From Pseudobdellovibrionaceae bacterium (lineage in GTDB: Bacteria; Bdellovibrionota; Bdellovibrionia; Bdellovibrionales; Bdellovibrionaceae), in NCBI GenBank assembly GCA_013359135.1, contig JABWCN010000037.1:1-42652 (forward strand): 42,652 nucleotides of DNA, written 5' to 3'. Positions within the stretch are counted from its first letter, which is position 1. Every line of letters begins with the position of its first letter. A program made the position numbers and the translations under genes. Under the pieces are notes generated by a model. It was not told where the DNA came from, made no database searches, and saw only the letters and a list, made by a program, of their open reading frames with translations. Shown piece by piece: positions 36,360 through 42,652 of the stretch.

Positions 36360-38105
36360 TTACTGCTGAACACCGTAGAAACTTAATTTCCATGAAGTCA
36401 GATTTCCAGTGTTACCTGAACGTCCATCTACGATTTTAAGTTTCCAATTTCCAGCAGATGATTCCATAAAAAATCTATTTGTTAGAAAAGTATACCCCGC
36501 ATAATTACTAGTGCCATCCAATGAGTTATTCATTGGCACAACAACACTTCGATCACCTCTTGGAGAAATTAATTCTACGGCTAGCTCTCCAACGTTGGAA
36601 TGAGTTAATGTCACTTTAATTTGGATCGCTTCAATTCTGATATTATCAGTTACCGAAACCAAACTCTCAACTCCATCTTTGTTATTATCAGGAATTGATA
36701 AATTTAGTCCGGTTGAATTGTAATCAAACTGTGATTGCACTTGCTGAAATAAACTAGAATAACTTTTTGCATATTCAATTGCGGCATCAACATTAATAAT
36801 TCCAAATCCAAACAAATTGTGAAAATTAAAACCAGCTTGATTTATAGTCCAACCATCATCCCAAATATAACCTACTGGTGACTTTTGATTTGCAAAACGA
36901 GTGGGATTTTGTAAGTATAAATAGTTCTCATTTTGAGCGCTATCAGCCTGAGCTTTTAAAGCCGTTTTTGCAAGGATGTACTTCACATCCCGCCAATTTA
37001 GTTGCGGATGAGCTTGCAATAACAAAGCGATACTTCCTGTCACATTAGGAGCTGCGCTTGATGTACCGTTAAAACTTGCTGTATAGTTACAGTTGTTGTT
37101 ACCATTAGCTCCAAGTTGAAAACCTCCACCCATGATTTTATAATCACCTGTTACTGACTGATTCGCATACCCTAATAGGCAACCAGTTCGATCCGTTGTA
37201 ATCATTGCCGGACTATCTATTCCATCCTCTCCTCCTGGAGCACTTATCCACAAATGAGAGCCAGGTGAACTGTAATAGGCATTCTTACCGTTGGAAAAAA
37301 AAGCTCCAACATTAATCGTATACGGAGTGATATTATTCCCATCAAAGTTACCAACTCCAATGCGATATTCATTCACAGTGCGACCTACCATTTCAATTCT
37401 AGAGTTTCCTGAGGATCGTACATATATTTTCCCCTTACCAGTTCTTCCATTTTCAACTCCATACTTTAGCTGATCGGCAAAAGAAGCGTCAATACTAGTG
37501 TACGAAGTCTGTGAATACCCCCAACTCATATTCACCAAATCAACATCTCCTTTAGCTTGATCTGCAATAATATCCGAGGTTTTAGTAACATCGTTAGACA
37601 TAAAATTAGTAGCGATCATTTTCGCCTTTGGAGCTACACCTCGTGAGCCCTTACCATTCCATCCAACAGCGGCTATAAGTCCAGAAACGCTTGTCCCATG
37701 AAAATCAACCTCTGAAGGTAAAGCAGTAAAACTCAGCCAATTCTTGACTAAATAGTCTCTATATTCTTTAGTTACTAAAAAATTCTCAGCTAAATCTTCA
37801 TGTTTTTGATCTACACCATCATCACTGATTTGAATTTTAATTCCTTCTCCAAATATTTGCTTTGACCAAGTATTCTGCAAACCCAAATCATACCCTGCAA
37901 TACCATTTACCTGTGAGAAAACTTTTTGCCCTGTATTGTTCAGATGCCAAGCGTAGCCAATAAGTGGATCACCTTCATTTAAAGAATCCATAGTAAAATT
38001 TCCTACTGGAGGAGTACTAACACCAAACCCCCCCTGAGAGCAGTTTTGAAAAGAAAATAATAGGAGCGTAACTATTAAAAAAACGCTTGCTAATTTAATT
38101 GCCAT
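36360..38105 (-). CDS. Subtilisin-like (S8) protease lipoprotein with P domain
   Basis: 581 residues. A lipoprotein signal ends in FQNC (Cys22). After only ~25 residues the S8 catalytic domain begins (GYAWHLNNTGQ near 50-60): Asp95 in ISDDGVD, His136 in DFHGT, Asn232 in SSGNS and Ser347 in FNGTSSAAP. The C-terminal ~110 residues form a proprotein-convertase P domain (LTHSNVGELAVELISPRGD ... GNWKLKIVDGRSGNTGNLTSWKLSFYG). There is no N-terminal propeptide, which subtilases normally need for folding. The overlapping upstream gene (38090) encodes a propeptide-like protein. The protease would be anchored in the outer membrane. Confidence 0.88.
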   Translation of the reverse strand: MAIKLASVFLIVTLLLFSFQNCSQGGFGVSTPPVGNFTMDSLNEGDPLIGYAWHLNNTGQKVFSQVNGIAGYDLGLQNTWSKQIFGEGIKIQISDDGVDQKHEDLAENFLVTKEYRDYLVKNWLSFTALPSEVDFHGTSVSGLIAAVGWNGKGSRGVAPKAKMIATNFMSNDVTKTSDIIADQAKGDVDLVNMSWGYSQTSYTSIDASFADQLKYGVENGRTGKGKIYVRSSGNSRIEMVGRTVNEYRIGVGNFDGNNITPYTINVGAFFSNGKNAYYSSPGSHLWISAPGGEDGIDSPAMITTDRTGCLLGYANQSVTGDYKIMGGGFQLGANGNNNCNYTASFNGTSSAAPNVTGSIALLLQAHPQLNWRDVKYILAKTALKAQADSAQNENYLYLQNPTRFANQKSPVGYIWDDGWTINQAGFNFHNLFGFGIINVDAAIEYAKSYSSLFQQVQSQFDYNSTGLNLSIPDNNKDGVESLVSVTDNIRIEAIQIKVTLTHSNVGELAVELISPRGDRSVVVPMNNSLDGTSNYAGYTFLTNRFFMESSAGNWKLKIVDGRSGNTGNLTSWKLSFYGVQQ

Positions 38106-38899
38106 TGATCCCTGACCACTTCTAAGTAACTACTTACAACTCTAATATCATTTTCCAATTTCTTTTTTTTATTTTTTATTTTCTCAAGAGATTGAGCCTT
38201 AACAAAAACAGTTTTTATTTCTGTATTTAAATTATCTACTTCAAAATCATAGTCTTTTACTAGCTGATCAACCAGAGCCAATTCTTTTACCTTAACAACT
38301 AAGCGACCAGTTAACACACTAAATACTTTTTGATTTTCATCAAAAATTAGTTTTGCAGGAACTTCCTGTTGCTCCTCTTTTCTTATCGCAACCTTATAGG
38401 TGCCTAATGAAAAAACGGTGTCATAAGCTGCAATATCATCTTCTGCGACAACTAAATTATCAAAAATTGACCATCTGTCGTTTTCATCAAAAACATGCAA
38501 TCTAAGTGGTTTTCTTGGAAAGTTATTTAAGAACTGAGATTGAATTTGACTTTGTCTCTGCACCACAACTTTTTTTGCTTCTAGCCATTTCCATTGTGCT
38601 TTTTTTCTGGAAGTTAGCTCTTGTTGTAAAATATTCTGATTACTAGCCTCAGAAGCTAAATGTCTATTTTCAGATGAAGTCATTGAAATCTTTTTTTGGG
38701 GTTGAGACTCAACGCTTACGAATTTATTTATCTGAACAACTTTTTTAGGTTGAGAGGTTATGTTGTTATTTATTGAAGATTGAGACAACCGACTATCATC
38801 TCTATGATTCATTTTTTTATGATATCTGATAGAAAAATAACTAATTGTAATCAACACAAAAAAAAGAACAGCTACGAATTTTTCATTCCTGAAAGACAT
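38090..38899 (-). CDS. Membrane-anchored protein resembling a detached subtilase propeptide
   Basis: 269 residues. An N-terminal signal-anchor helix (about 8-25) is followed by a polar Ser/Gln/Lys linker (26-110) and a folded C-terminal part. The last ~75 residues (RLVVKVKELALVDQLVKDYD to the end) follow the beta-alpha-beta pattern of I9/S8 propeptides: Val-x-Val strand, helix with a conserved-type Leu-Val spacing, then a long helix and a VVSSYLEV strand. The gene overlaps the protease by 16 bases in another frame. I infer a trans-acting chaperone/inhibitor; the similarity is by eye only. Confidence 0.6.
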   Translation of the reverse strand: MSFRNEKFVAVLFFVLITISYFSIRYHKKMNHRDDSRLSQSSINNNITSQPKKVVQINKFVSVESQPQKKISMTSSENRHLASEASNQNILQQELTSRKKAQWKWLEAKKVVVQRQSQIQSQFLNNFPRKPLRLHVFDENDRWSIFDNLVVAEDDIAAYDTVFSLGTYKVAIRKEEQQEVPAKLIFDENQKVFSVLTGRLVVKVKELALVDQLVKDYDFEVDNLNTEIKTVFVKAQSLEKIKNKKKKLENDIRVVSSYLEVVRDQWQLN

Positions 38900-38963
38900 A
38901 CTTTCAGTATATAAAAGTTCTTACTACTTGTGGATTTAAAAATACTTCTGCTTCATAATGAAC

Positions 38964-40439
38964 CTAACTTCTAAACCTTAGTGGTAACGATTCATTTTCC
39001 AATTTTGAAACAAGACAATCACTTACTGTATGGACATATAAACTATTAGTTTTACTACCTAACTCTATAGGCTGTCCTAAAGTGAGAATCACTCTATCAC
39101 CAGTTTTAGCTATTCCAAACTTCATCATCATATTATCTAATTGAGAAAGAATTTCATCCATGGTTTTGTAATCATTAATAAGTAATGTCTGCAATCCCCA
39201 GACTAACTCTAGTTTGTTTAAAACAGAAATTTGATTTGTCATTGCGTAAATAGGAACTTGGGGCCTAAACCCTGATATGATTTGCGCTGTTTTACCAGAG
39301 GTCGTCAAACAAACTATCGCTTTAGCATTAAGTTTTAAAGCACATAGGCAGGCACTAGCAGCAATCCCACTAGGAATACTAAGAAATTCATTTTCAAGAG
39401 ACAAACGATAGTATTTCTCCTCATTTTTCTCGACTTCAAAAATAATTTCATTCATAGTTTGAATAGCTTTAAAAGGATATTTACCACTTGCACTTTCTGC
39501 AGATAACATCAGAGCATCCGAACCATCTAAAACAGCATTGGCCACATCCGTAATCTCAGCTCTTGTTGGTCTAGGATTTTCGACCATAGAATCAAGCATT
39601 TGTGTTGCAGTTATTACTGGCTTATTTAACTCATTACACAAATTAATAATTTTTTTTTGAATACCTGGCAAACGACTTTGTCCAACTTCGACTGCTAGGT
39701 CACCTCTAGCCACCATTACTCCATCAGAAAGACGAATAATTTCATCAATATTATCAAGAGCTTCGAGCATTTCAATTTTTGCAATTACTTTGGCAGCACT
39801 ATTCTTTTTTTCAATGATTTCTTTTATTGTTCTGATATCTCTTCCATGACGAACAAAGCTTAAAGCTACATAGTCTACTTGATTACTTAATCCAAAATCT
39901 AAATCTAATAAATCTTTATCTGTAAGTGATTTGATGGGTAGTTGAGCTTCAGGAATATTTATTCCTTTTCTATTTTTTAAAACTCCCCCATAGATAACTT
40001 TTAACAAAACAAAGGGTTTGTCTATTTTTATCACTTGCAGTTCTATCAACCCATCATCTAAAAGAACCTTGAAGTTAGGCTTCACAATATCTGTTAACGA
40101 TAATAAGTCTGTTGGAATCAGATTTTCATCCCCGACAACATTTTCAGTTGTCATTCGAACTATCTGGTCTCTTTCTAGTTTAATTTGTCCCTCTTTAAAC
40201 TGTCCTACTCTAATTTTAGGACCCTGCAAATCTTGTAAAATAGCTACAGGTGCATTTAATTTTTTTGATAAACTTCTAATAGTTTGTATATTTTTTAAAT
40301 GTAATTCATGAGTCCCATGACTAAAGTTAAGTCTTGCGACATTCATACCACTCCGTATCGCATTTTCTATTTGTTCTTCGGTGCTAGTAGAAGGCCCCAA
40401 AGTCGCTACAATTTTAACTTTTCTTTGATATAACCGCAT
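38964..40439 (-). CDS. pyk: Pyruvate kinase
   Basis: 491 residues. It transfers phosphate from phosphoenolpyruvate to ADP, the last step of glycolysis. Visible: NFSHGTHELH near the N-terminus, DLQGPKIRVG, the active-site signature AKIEMLEALDNIDE, MVARGDLAVEVG and TQMLDSM, then the C-terminal allosteric domain (CLTTSGKTAQIISGFRPQVPIYAMT). Start ATG at 40439 has AGGAAA about 10 bases upstream, inside the preceding coiled-coil frame, whose TAA lies 2 bases before. The two are therefore probably one operon. Confidence 0.95.
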   Translation of the reverse strand: MRLYQRKVKIVATLGPSTSTEEQIENAIRSGMNVARLNFSHGTHELHLKNIQTIRSLSKKLNAPVAILQDLQGPKIRVGQFKEGQIKLERDQIVRMTTENVVGDENLIPTDLLSLTDIVKPNFKVLLDDGLIELQVIKIDKPFVLLKVIYGGVLKNRKGINIPEAQLPIKSLTDKDLLDLDFGLSNQVDYVALSFVRHGRDIRTIKEIIEKKNSAAKVIAKIEMLEALDNIDEIIRLSDGVMVARGDLAVEVGQSRLPGIQKKIINLCNELNKPVITATQMLDSMVENPRPTRAEITDVANAVLDGSDALMLSAESASGKYPFKAIQTMNEIIFEVEKNEEKYYRLSLENEFLSIPSGIAASACLCALKLNAKAIVCLTTSGKTAQIISGFRPQVPIYAMTNQISVLNKLELVWGLQTLLINDYKTMDEILSQLDNMMMKFGIAKTGDRVILTLGQPIELGSKTNSLYVHTVSDCLVSKLENESLPLRFRS

Positions 40440-40441
40440 TA

Positions 40442-42652
40442 TTAAGCTTTCCTACTATAATTTTGCATCTTCAACGCCATATTCTTCAATTCATTTTCAT
40501 GACGATCATTCAATTTTGTCAATTGATCTTCATACTGATCTTGAATATTTTTAATCTTAGACTCATATTTTTTTTCAGTAGAATTTACAGACATTTTATT
40601 TTCTTTTTCTTTTTCTTCTAGCTTGGTATTCATAATTGTTGTTAAATATTTTTTATCTTTTTCACTATCTTCACTCATTTTATTAATTTTATCCTCATAG
40701 TTACCAGCAACTTTTTCCAATTTTTTTTCAAAATTCGCTTTTAATTTTCTAAATTTTTCACCATACAAAGCATTTAACTGCAATAGATCTTTATCATGCT
40801 TTTCACGTTGTTCATATATTTTATCCATGTATCCATCCCTCATTTGATCAAGATACTCATCGTAGTAATTCACAAGTTTTGTTTCTTTATTATTTGCTAT
40901 TTTTTGAATTGTATCTATTCGCTTCTCACTTGAGTTCTCTATATTAAAAGTTTCATTGCGGTGAAGCTCTGTTAATGCAGCTCGATCTTGCCGATGTTTT
41001 TCATTGACCAGATTCTGCTCAATTTTTGTCCTCTTTTGCAATTCATTATTGAACTTTGAATTCGTATTAATAACTTTATCGATTCTTTCATTATTCACTA
41101 ACTTCAAAGACTCCCTTTGTTGATCCATCATATCTTCAATATTAGCCTGTCTTTTTTCATATTCACCAATAATATTCTTTTTTTCTAAATCTTTTCTTTT
41201 ACTTAGATTTGCCTGATCAACGTACATTCGATTTTTTAGCTTATTAATTTCTGCATCTCTCGAACGAACTTGGTTGTTATAGCGATCATCCACTGAGTCC
41301 CTAAATGTATCATTCGCCTGAAGAACTCTATTCTCTAACTTTTCATATTTTTGATCAAATTTCTCTTTATTACGATGAAGTTCTTCTTGCATGATTTCTT
41401 GTTTGACTTGATCGTTTTCAGAGTATTGCTGTCCTAGTGCCTCTATAGCATTTGAAAATTTATTCTCCCAATTAGTATTTTGCCTTTCTTTAGTTTTGTT
41501 CAAATCACTAATTTGAGATTTATAAAAGTCTTTCGAATCAGCCTTTTCTTTTAGAAATCGTTCTCTCTCTATCTCTTGATTGCCTTTTAATGTATTTAAT
41601 TCTTTATTATAGGCTTCTTGTAATTTTCTTGATCTCGTGTTTACCGATTCTTGCAAGCCAACTCTAGTTTTTTCATGAAGACTGTTTATATTATCGTCCC
41701 TCTTAGCAATCTCTTCCTGAAATCTTTTCTTCAAAAGTTCTTTTTGACTTTCATTAATCTTATCTTGAGTCTCTGCTTCCATTTGATAATTATCATTCAA
41801 TACTTTTTTTTCTGTATTAGCCTCTTCCATTTTATTTTTTAACTGGTTTAAATACAAAGATCTTACATCCGAAATCTGCTTCTGATGTTTTTGCTCGGTT
41901 TCATTAAGCTTGTCTGCATATTTTTCTTGAAGATTTCTAAAATTAACTTCATCCTCGTCAGAAAATTTAGTTTCATCAATATTTTTTGTACTAATAACTT
42001 TCCCTAAAGTAAAACCAACTCTATGAATAAAAGCACTTTCCCCCAAAATCATTCCCTGATTAATTAATTTTTTAAAAGGTTCTTCGGGTGTGATGAAGCC
42101 GCGGTCTTTTAGAAATTTATTCCAAAAACGTGAATACAATAAATGTCCGGTGGCGTGTTCGCTACCACCAATATATAAATCTACATTTTCCCAATAGTTT
42201 AAGGCATCTTGGCTGGCAAATTCGTTTTCGTTGTGAGCATCCATATAACGCATCCAATACCACGAAGAACCTGCCCAACCCGGCATCGTATTCAATTCTA
42301 ATGGGAAAACGGTTTTGTTATCAATCAACTGATTACTAACCACTGTACACTGAACACTGTCCCACGCCCAGTGAGTAGCATTTCCTAATGGCGGTTGTCC
42401 GTCTTCGGTTGGTAAATATTTCTCTACTTCCGGTAAAATAATTGGTAAATGTTTTAAATCAATCATTTGCGGCAAGCCATTAACATAGTAAACGGGAAAC
42501 GGTTCGCCCCAATAACGTTGTCTTGAGAAAACCGCATCACGCAAACGGTAATTGGTTTTCCCTTTTCCTTGACCAATTTGTTCTAAGGCTTCGATGGCTT
42601 TTTTGGTGGCTTCTTTATAACCTAGACCATTTAAAAAATCAGAATTGACTAA
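40442..42652 (-). CDS. Chimeric open frame: leucyl-tRNA synthetase fragment joined to a coiled-coil protein
   Basis: A continuous frame that enters from the right edge. The first ~212 residues are a leucyl-tRNA synthetase piece (see the separate entry for 42017-42652). From about 42016 to the stop, ~525 residues are a long charged coiled coil almost free of Gly, Pro and Cys and dominated by Lys, Glu, Gln, Asn and Asp in heptads (for example EKYADKLNETEQKHQKQ). No family or function is recognised; it could be a filament or scaffold protein. The natural N-terminus of the coiled coil is not visible, because the synthetase reading replaces it. The stop lies 2 bases before pyk. Confidence 0.75.
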   Translation of the reverse strand, partial: LVNSDFLNGLGYKEATKKAIEALEQIGQGKGKTNYRLRDAVFSRQRYWGEPFPVYYVNGLPQMIDLKHLPIILPEVEKYLPTEDGQPPLGNATHWAWDSVQCTVVSNQLIDNKTVFPLELNTMPGWAGSSWYWMRYMDAHNENEFASQDALNYWENVDLYIGGSEHATGHLLYSRFWNKFLKDRGFITPEEPFKKLINQGMILGESAFIHRVGFTLGKVISTKNIDETKFSDEDEVNFRNLQEKYADKLNETEQKHQKQISDVRSLYLNQLKNKMEEANTEKKVLNDNYQMEAETQDKINESQKELLKKRFQEEIAKRDDNINSLHEKTRVGLQESVNTRSRKLQEAYNKELNTLKGNQEIERERFLKEKADSKDFYKSQISDLNKTKERQNTNWENKFSNAIEALGQQYSENDQVKQEIMQEELHRNKEKFDQKYEKLENRVLQANDTFRDSVDDRYNNQVRSRDAEINKLKNRMYVDQANLSKRKDLEKKNIIGEYEKRQANIEDMMDQQRESLKLVNNERIDKVINTNSKFNNELQKRTKIEQNLVNEKHRQDRAALTELHRNETFNIENSSEKRIDTIQKIANNKETKLVNYYDEYLDQMRDGYMDKIYEQREKHDKDLLQLNALYGEKFRKLKANFEKKLEKVAGNYEDKINKMSEDSEKDKKYLTTIMNTKLEEKEKENKMSVNSTEKKYESKIKNIQDQYEDQLTKLNDRHENELKNMALKMQNYSRKA
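42017..42652 (-). other. leuS: Partial leuS (Bacteroidota-like) forming the 5' part of the chimeric frame
   Basis: The minus strand from the right edge reads LVNSDFLNGLGYKEA, then RLRDAVFSRQRYWGEPFPVYY, ELNTMPGWAGSSWYWMRYMD and DLYIGGSEHATGHLLYSRFW, all typical of LeuS and closest, by memory, to Bacteroidota-type enzymes. It stops after LINQGMILGESAFIHRV, before the KMSKS loop, so it cannot be a working synthetase. Its base composition is visibly richer in GC than the coiled-coil part next to it. Gene fusion, recent transfer or misassembly are all possible. Confidence 0.85.

What the first reader, a model, noticed from the sequence alone, without database searches (positions are those of the whole stretch)
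36360..38899. Subtilase with its propeptide-like domain encoded by a separate overlapping gene
The S8 protease gene starts with a lipobox and goes almost directly into the catalytic domain, so no room is left for the usual propeptide. The gene just upstream, overlapping by 16 bases in another frame, ends in ~75 residues that look like an I9/S8 propeptide fold and carries its own membrane anchor. An inner-membrane-anchored chaperone/inhibitor acting in trans on an outer-membrane lipoprotein protease would be an unusual arrangement and would need control of release during lipoprotein transport.
Basis: partly seen in the sequence, partly recalled or inferred. Interest (0 to 1): 0.62.

Follow-up and report, generated by a model that had tools for sequence, protein, structure and literature searches.

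The report
Protease with separate membrane-anchored folding helper
Two overlapping genes in a Bdellovibrio-type bacterium encode a protein-cutting enzyme that lacks its built-in folding segment and a separate, membrane-anchored protein with the shape of that missing segment; such helpers were known as soluble proteins in Aeromonas and relatives, and here a whole lineage of mostly predatory bacteria has tethered its version to the membrane.

Summary
The 38090-38899(-) gene overlaps the subtilase gene 36360-38105(-) by 16 bases; the protease runs from a lipoprotein-type signal (Cys22) almost straight into a kexin-like S8 domain (Asp95, His136, Ser349) plus P-domain. The upstream protein has a TM helix (6-30), a ~100-residue linker and a C-terminal beta-alpha-beta-beta-alpha-beta domain. 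Its best match in the PDB is ORF2, the external chaperone of the propeptide-less Aeromonas sobria protease ASP (Z 9.3, 97 of 99 residues); profile comparison with gammaproteobacterial ORF2-type proteins gives 98.5%, E 2e-15; the protease's best PDB match is ASP (E 1.6e-67). So this is an ASP/ORF2-type pair, a known kind. What differs: throughout the Bdellovibrionota sampled the chaperone is membrane-anchored, it usually lies upstream, often overlapping, and the client is mostly a lipoprotein. On the protease tree the anchor state changes once, gene order at least six times. Some gammaproteobacteria carry the ORF2-like domain fused in cis, linking external chaperone and ordinary propeptide. It is not a frameshift. 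Most likely: a membrane-tethered steric chaperone and temporary inhibitor acting in trans, laid out like lipase foldases. In-trans action, outer-membrane location and release are inferred, not shown.

The parts
38093..38899 (-). Chaperone/inhibitor gene, ORF2-type external propeptide, 269 aa (stop codon at 38090-38092)
   Evidence: ORF; PF18492 E 9.3e-6, just below the curated cut-off; structural top hit 3wqb_B; hhalign 98.5%, E 2e-15 to gammaproteobacterial ORF2-type proteins
38810..38884 (-). Transmembrane signal anchor, residues 6-30
   Evidence: AF2 helix 6-30; hydropathy 3.49, no AxA-type cleavage site (score -0.5)
38504..38809 (-). Linker / N-terminal extension, residues 31-132: about 48 disordered residues then a long predicted helix 79-126
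   Evidence: AF2 pLDDT about 46-66 for residues 31-80 or so
38093..38503 (-). Chaperone domain, residues 133-269; propeptide-like core 192-263
   Evidence: VIA-align to ORF2 3wqb_B over model 133-269, Z 9.3, rmsd 2.8
38093..38110 (-). C-terminal tail DQWQLN (residues 264-269), expected to fill the protease active site as in ORF2
   Evidence: Position after the last strand; ORF2 C-terminal residues sit at the ASP active site (PMC5638518); the tail itself has low pLDDT
38090..38105 (-). 16-base overlap of the two genes; an AGGG a few bases upstream of the protease ATG lies inside the chaperone gene
36363..38105 (-). ASP-like kexin-type S8 protease, 581 aa, no propeptide (stop codon at 36360-36362)
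   Evidence: Best PDB hit 3hjr E 1.6e-67; Pfam S8 and P_proprotein
38040..38105 (-). Lipoprotein-type signal peptide with lineage-type lipobox SFQN-C22
   Evidence: FQNC test in own genome: 23 matches, 18 of them after a hydrophobic stretch, against 6 for the reversed pattern
36933..37850 (-). Catalytic S8 domain (residues 86-391) with Asp95, His136, Ser349
   Evidence: Pfam; residues invariant in 26 relatives
36378..36635 (-). Proprotein convertase P-domain (residues 491-576)
   Evidence: Pfam E 2.7e-20

Best explanation
The upstream gene encodes an inner-membrane-anchored member of the ORF2 external-chaperone family. Its C-terminal domain, exposed to the periplasm on a ~100-residue tether, serves in trans as the missing propeptide of the overlapping ASP-like S8/P-domain lipoprotein protease: it templates folding of the catalytic domain after Sec export, and its C-terminal tail plugs the active site until the protease is passed on, most likely to the outer membrane. 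Gene overlap supplies the two in step. The tether keeps the chaperone at the inner membrane, where it cannot travel with its client and might act more than once. Shown here: anatomy, predicted fold, homology, conserved pairing, anchoring as a lineage trait. Inferred: binding, foldase action, inhibition, topology, lipoprotein destination, release.
For: Protease best PDB hit is ASP, E 1.6e-67, itself propeptide-deficient and dependent on ORF2 (PMC5638518). Chaperone: PF18492 E 9.3e-6; a profile of 36 Bdellovibrionota chaperones has ORF2 as best PDB sequence (E 0.015); hhalign 98.5%, E 2e-15 to gammaproteobacterial ORF2-type proteins, which hit ORF2 at E 7e-9. Top PDB fold for the window model is ORF2 3wqb_B, then furin/subtilisin-type prodomains. 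Fused ortholog chain L084 (pTM 0.75) aligns to Pro-Tk-subtilisin 2zwo_C over propeptide and catalytic domain together, 337 residues at 3.3 A. Pair conserved. Anchor versus cleavable signal differs by clade (cleavage-score medians 0.7 against 6.1, p 1e-4) and changes once on the protease tree. Flank charges favour N-in topology across 67 proteins (p 5e-6). Other subtilases of the same genome mostly carry their own N-terminal pro-regions. Natural cis fusions in gammaproteobacteria.
Against: The PF18492 score of the window protein is below the curated cut-off (26.3 vs 29.2). Foldseek E-values are weak taken alone (7.7e-3). In the window protein itself the flank charges do not favour N-in (net +1 before, +2 after the TM). 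The lipobox with Asn at -1 is non-canonical. The anchor labels used on the tree were partly set by eye, and L132, L103 and L107 were not on it; L132, from outside the phylum by its title, looks anchored too. The fused model used an ortholog, a shallow alignment and an artificial covalent link; the tail has low confidence. No binding or activity data.
Confidence: 0.82

Rival explanations
1. The anchored protein is mainly a long-term inhibitor or safety lock at the inner membrane, protecting the cell's own periplasm from a protease that can fold by itself.
For: ORF2 also inhibits mature ASP (IC50 84 nM, PMC5638518); propeptides are inhibitors as well as chaperones; inner-membrane location suits protection of self.
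Against: No protease of the Bdellovibrionota clade with complete flanks lacks the partner, and the protease has no propeptide of its own, which points to a folding need. The two roles are not exclusive.
Confidence: 0.1
2. The hydrophobic N-terminus is a cleaved signal peptide and the chaperone is soluble in the periplasm, exactly as in Aeromonas.
For: Short N-terminal hydrophobic segments are hard to classify; some relatives have acceptable cleavage motifs within the segment.
Against: Bdellovibrionota chaperones have a 15-20 residue hydrophobic run, usually followed by charged residues; median cleavage score 0.7 against 6.1 in the others; window score -0.5; AF2 gives a 25-residue helix.
Confidence: 0.1
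3. One propeptide-protease gene broken by a frameshift or a sequencing error.
For: Homologues with both domains in one ORF exist in some gammaproteobacteria.
Against: 35 Bdellovibrionota loci keep two ORFs in this order with varying spacing (-23, -20, -17, -16, -14, -11, -4, -1, 0, +1, +2, +93), each with its own start and a second export signal at the protease N-terminus. No fused copy was seen in the phylum loci.
Confidence: 0.01
4. The upstream protein is a small ferredoxin-like protein (ACT, RRM or similar) that only happens to sit next to the protease.
For: Ferredoxin-like folds are common; many unrelated ones reach Z 6-7.
Against: ORF2 is the top match, covering also the strands 133-191 before the core (97 of 99 residues), and sequence profiles independently find ORF2; pairing in 38 of 41 loci.
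Confidence: 0.02

Closest known systems
Aeromonas sobria serine protease ASP with external chaperone ORF2 (PDB 3WQB, 2MK4; Pfam PF18492; Kobayashi et al. 2015, cited in PMC5638518)
   Same: Homologous propeptide-less S8 + P-domain protease; homologous chaperone with propeptide-like body and C-terminal tail; adjacent genes.
   Different: Here the chaperone is membrane-anchored with a long linker (269 aa against 148 for the deposited ORF2 chain), lies upstream and overlaps; the protease has a lipoprotein-type signal instead of being secreted to the medium.
Lipase-specific foldase Lif/LipH (Pseudomonas, Burkholderia; PMC13381987)
   Same: Same layout and probably same logic: N-terminal TM helix, variable linker, periplasmic steric-chaperone domain, gene next to the client; tether prevents loss of the chaperone.
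   Different: Unrelated domain and client; Lif clients go through the type II secretion system, here the client looks like a lipoprotein. [quoted passage not shown]
Subtilisin / furin propeptides (Inhibitor_I9, S8 pro-domains)
   Same: Same fold and predicted docking site.
   Different: Encoded in cis and cleaved off; no Inhibitor_I9 sequence match here.
Gammaproteobacterial single-ORF relatives L123, L129, L138, L148, L162
   Same: ORF2-like domain followed by an ASP-like protease with P-domain.
   Different: One polypeptide, with a further ~170-residue region between the two domains.

Membership tests
ORF2-type external chaperone (PF18492) | Sequence homology to the ORF2 family | tested here: met
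   Window protein alone E 9.3e-6 but 26.3 bits against a cut-off of 29.2; relatives in 21 of 291 phylum genomes exceed the cut-off; hhalign 98.5%, E 2e-15
ORF2-type external chaperone (PF18492) | Central body and tail with subtilisin-propeptide-like fold | tested here: met
   AF2 model and top PDB match 3wqb_B, Z 9.3, 97/99 residues
ORF2-type external chaperone (PF18492) | Encoded next to a propeptide-deficient ASP-like S8 protease with P-domain | tested here: met
ORF2-type external chaperone (PF18492) | C-terminal tail occupies the active site | tested here: inconclusive
   Domain sits at the propeptide site in the fused ortholog model, but tail pLDDT is low
ORF2-type external chaperone (PF18492) | Required for folding of the protease | not testable with these tools
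   needs experiment
Aeromonas sub-type of ASP/ORF2 (trait not defining for the family) | Chaperone gene downstream of the protease gene | tested here: not met
   Upstream and overlapping here; order changes at least 6 times on the protease tree, so it does not define the family
Aeromonas sub-type of ASP/ORF2 (trait not defining for the family) | Soluble periplasmic chaperone with cleavable signal peptide | tested here: not met
   TM anchor, cleavage score -0.5
Inhibitor_I9 sequence family | Significant match to the I9 profile | tested here: not met
   No I9 hit in the Pfam scan with E up to 10 (HMMER's filters apply); only the fold is shared
Lipase-specific foldase (Lif) | Homology to the lipase chaperone domain | tested here: not met
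   No such Pfam hit; resemblance is in layout only
Bacterial lipoprotein (the protease) | Canonical lipobox [LVI][ASTVI][GAS]C | tested here: inconclusive
   SFQNC lacks the canonical -1 residue, but FQNC behaves as a lipobox in this genome: 18 of 23 occurrences follow a hydrophobic stretch of the N-terminal signal type; reversed control 6 occurrences

The most novel reading that the evidence does not exclude
A third class of membrane-anchored steric foldases, serving subtilase lipoproteins, that arose once in Bdellovibrionota by giving a detached subtilase propeptide a transmembrane tether; each anchored molecule folds and locks successive protease molecules at the inner membrane before Lol-type transport takes them to the predator's outer membrane, so that activation coincides with separation from the membrane-bound inhibitor.
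Probability: 0.45. Interest if true: 0.68.

Novelty: new variant of a known kind. Interest (0 to 1): 0.48.

Why it matters
External chaperones for subtilases are still treated as an Aeromonas exception: a 2022 survey names ASP as the exception to the rule of an N-terminal propeptide (PMC9549277), although asp/orf2-type operons were earlier reported in four other genera, Vibrio, Shewanella, Chromobacterium and Pseudoalteromonas (PMC5638518). The data here extend the arrangement to many Bdellovibrionaceae and Bacteriovorax relatives, show that the partner is membrane-tethered there, and show forms with both domains in one protein, which connects external chaperones to ordinary propeptides. It makes testable how a predator folds and holds in check a surface protease, and gives a new system for tethered steric chaperones.

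Tried and rejected
Single-sequence phmmer of the chaperone against PDB found only a chance ABC-transporter match, E 0.05. NCBIfam had no model for the chaperone and only sub-cut-off matches for the protease. The first alignment for the fused model (A4) placed chaperone rows onto the protease and was discarded; replaced by A5 with pairs that are in frame once their stops are read through. The window pair itself cannot be fused in frame, so the docking model is of an ortholog (L084, UBA2316). Hits L080, L082 and L083 are chance matches (unrelated longer proteins, no S8 neighbour). Frameshift or artefact considered and rejected. The 2015 JBC structure paper is not in the paper library, so its details rest on PMC5638518 and the PDB entries. 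Paper searches for Bdellovibrio with an external chaperone or trans propeptide found none.

Full report
Observation. Both ORFs, the 16-base overlap, the lipoprotein-type start of the protease and the missing propeptide are in the sequence. The protease matches Pfam Peptidase_S8 at residues 86-391 and P_proprotein at 491-576; Asp95, His136 and Ser349 are invariant in 26 aligned proteases. Its nearest solved relatives are the Aeromonas sobria protease ASP (3hjr/3wqb, E 1.6e-67), then furin and kexin.

The upstream protein. The only meaningful Pfam match is ORF_2_N, the ASP chaperone family (E 9.3e-6 at residues 183-264, slightly under the curated cut-off). A profile of 36 Bdellovibrionota proteins has ORF2 as its best PDB sequences (2mk4, 3wqb_B; E 0.015 and 0.019); profile-profile comparison with gammaproteobacterial ORF2-type proteins gives 98.5%, E 2e-15 over the last 87 residues, and those proteins match ORF2 at E 7e-9. 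AlphaFold2 (mean pLDDT 78) gives a TM helix 6-30, disorder to 78, a long helix 79-126, and a C-terminal domain whose core 192-263 is strand-helix-strand-strand-helix-strand. 3wqb_B is first by Foldseek and by VIA-align (Z 9.3, rmsd 2.8, 97 of 99 residues, model 133-269); pro-domains of EpiP, subtilisin and furin follow among common ferredoxin-like folds. Unrelated ferredoxin-like folds reach Z 6-7 in the same list, so the ORF2 match is meaningful mainly because it also covers the strands before the core and because sequence profiles agree.

Docking. In UBA2316, a close relative, the chaperone stop codon is immediately followed, in frame, by the protease ATG (L084), so reading the stop through gives a fused chain. 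Its model (pTM 0.75) aligns to Pro-Tk-subtilisin 2zwo_C over 337 residues at 3.3 A, model 83-605, against 276 residues for a chain with the catalytic domain only (3a3p_A); the extra residues are the chaperone domain lying at the propeptide site. This is support, not proof: it is an ortholog, the chains are linked, and the tail has low confidence.

Distribution. PF18492 was found in 42 of 291 Bdellovibrionota genomes. After removing three chance loci (L080, L082, L083), 41 genes including the window's were tallied: 35 directly upstream of the protease, 3 downstream of it, 3 without a same-strand neighbour found (two of these lie near contig ends). Spacing varies: -14 in 17 loci, -4 in 6, others from -23 to +93, so two genes are the stable state and not a frameshift. 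A reverse scan with the protease in 84,980 species genomes found partners beside most: within the Bdellovibrionota clade the five without one are cut by contig ends. On a FastTree of 94 proteases the anchored and signal-peptide types separate with one change, gene order needs at least six. The labels for anchoring were heuristic and partly by eye; an objective cleavage score differs between the clades (medians 0.7 and 6.1, Mann-Whitney p 1e-4). Flanking charges over 67 anchored proteins favour the domain being outside the cytoplasm (p 5e-6), though not clearly in the window protein itself.

Lipoprotein. FQNC lacks the canonical lipobox residue before Cys, but of 23 occurrences in this genome 18 follow a hydrophobic stretch of the N-terminal signal type, against 6 occurrences in total for the reversed pattern. 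I take it as the lineage's lipobox. Residue +2 is Ser, so outer-membrane sorting is expected from the general Lol rule (own knowledge; untested in this phylum).

The rest of the genome. Seventeen S8 matches were found in the genome. Most of those whose ORF could be read have 100 or more residues between the N-terminus and the catalytic region; the window protease does not. So the missing propeptide is a property of this protease family, not of the organism.

Cis fusions. Five gammaproteobacterial ORFs (L123, L129, L138, L148, L162) have the chaperone-like domain N-terminal to the protease in one protein (HMM E 4e-12 to 6e-6; these ORFs were not in the profile), with weak Pfam prodomain matches at the same place in three. 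In the same clade others have it as a separate gene upstream or downstream. External chaperone and propeptide are thus alternative arrangements within one protease family.

Mechanism and comparison. In Aeromonas, ORF2 is needed for ASP maturation, its last residues bind around the active site, and it inhibits the mature enzyme (PMC5638518). By homology the same is expected here. The tethered layout matches lipase foldases, where the TM helix and linker keep the chaperone from leaving with its client; [quoted passage not shown] I therefore file the pair as an ASP/ORF2-type system, and the anchored form as a new variant; it works like a lipase foldase in layout but is not a member of that family.

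Limits. No experiment; the chaperone's topology, the protease's final location and the release step are inferred.

Noticed in passing
L162:2969-5644, L148:2963-6712, L123:2885-5677, L138:2945-5677, L129:3053-5680: Gammaproteobacterial single ORFs with an ORF2-like domain fused N-terminally to an ASP-like S8 + P-domain protease, with a ~170-residue region between; a direct link between external chaperones and propeptides.
   Followed up: partly
window 40442-42544 (-): In-frame leucyl-tRNA synthetase-like fragment (about residues 1-175) joined to a coiled-coil protein at the contig edge. Relatives have the coiled-coil part alone (551-573 aa frames) and a LeuRS-size frame elsewhere, as does this genome (C59): assembly chimera or real fusion.
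   Followed up: partly
window 36360-42544 (-): The order coiled-coil gene, gap of pyruvate-kinase size, chaperone, protease is conserved in same-genus genomes G154, G124, G182 and G285 by coordinates; in the window the middle gene (38964-40439) reads as pyruvate kinase (own reading of the sequence).
   Followed up: partly
L134:5832-6491 (+): ORF2-like chaperone that itself carries a lipobox-like FALSGC, a possible third way of anchoring.
   Followed up: no
own genome, 18 loci among L164-L186: F-Q-N-C as a recurrent lipobox-like motif with Asn at -1, outside the usual lipobox consensus; standard predictors might miss such lipoproteins.
   Followed up: partly
L040 and L054 (same genome G157): Two complete chaperone-protease pairs in one genome, with proteases from distant branches of the tree, one having extra N-terminal sequence before the catalytic domain.
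   Followed up: no
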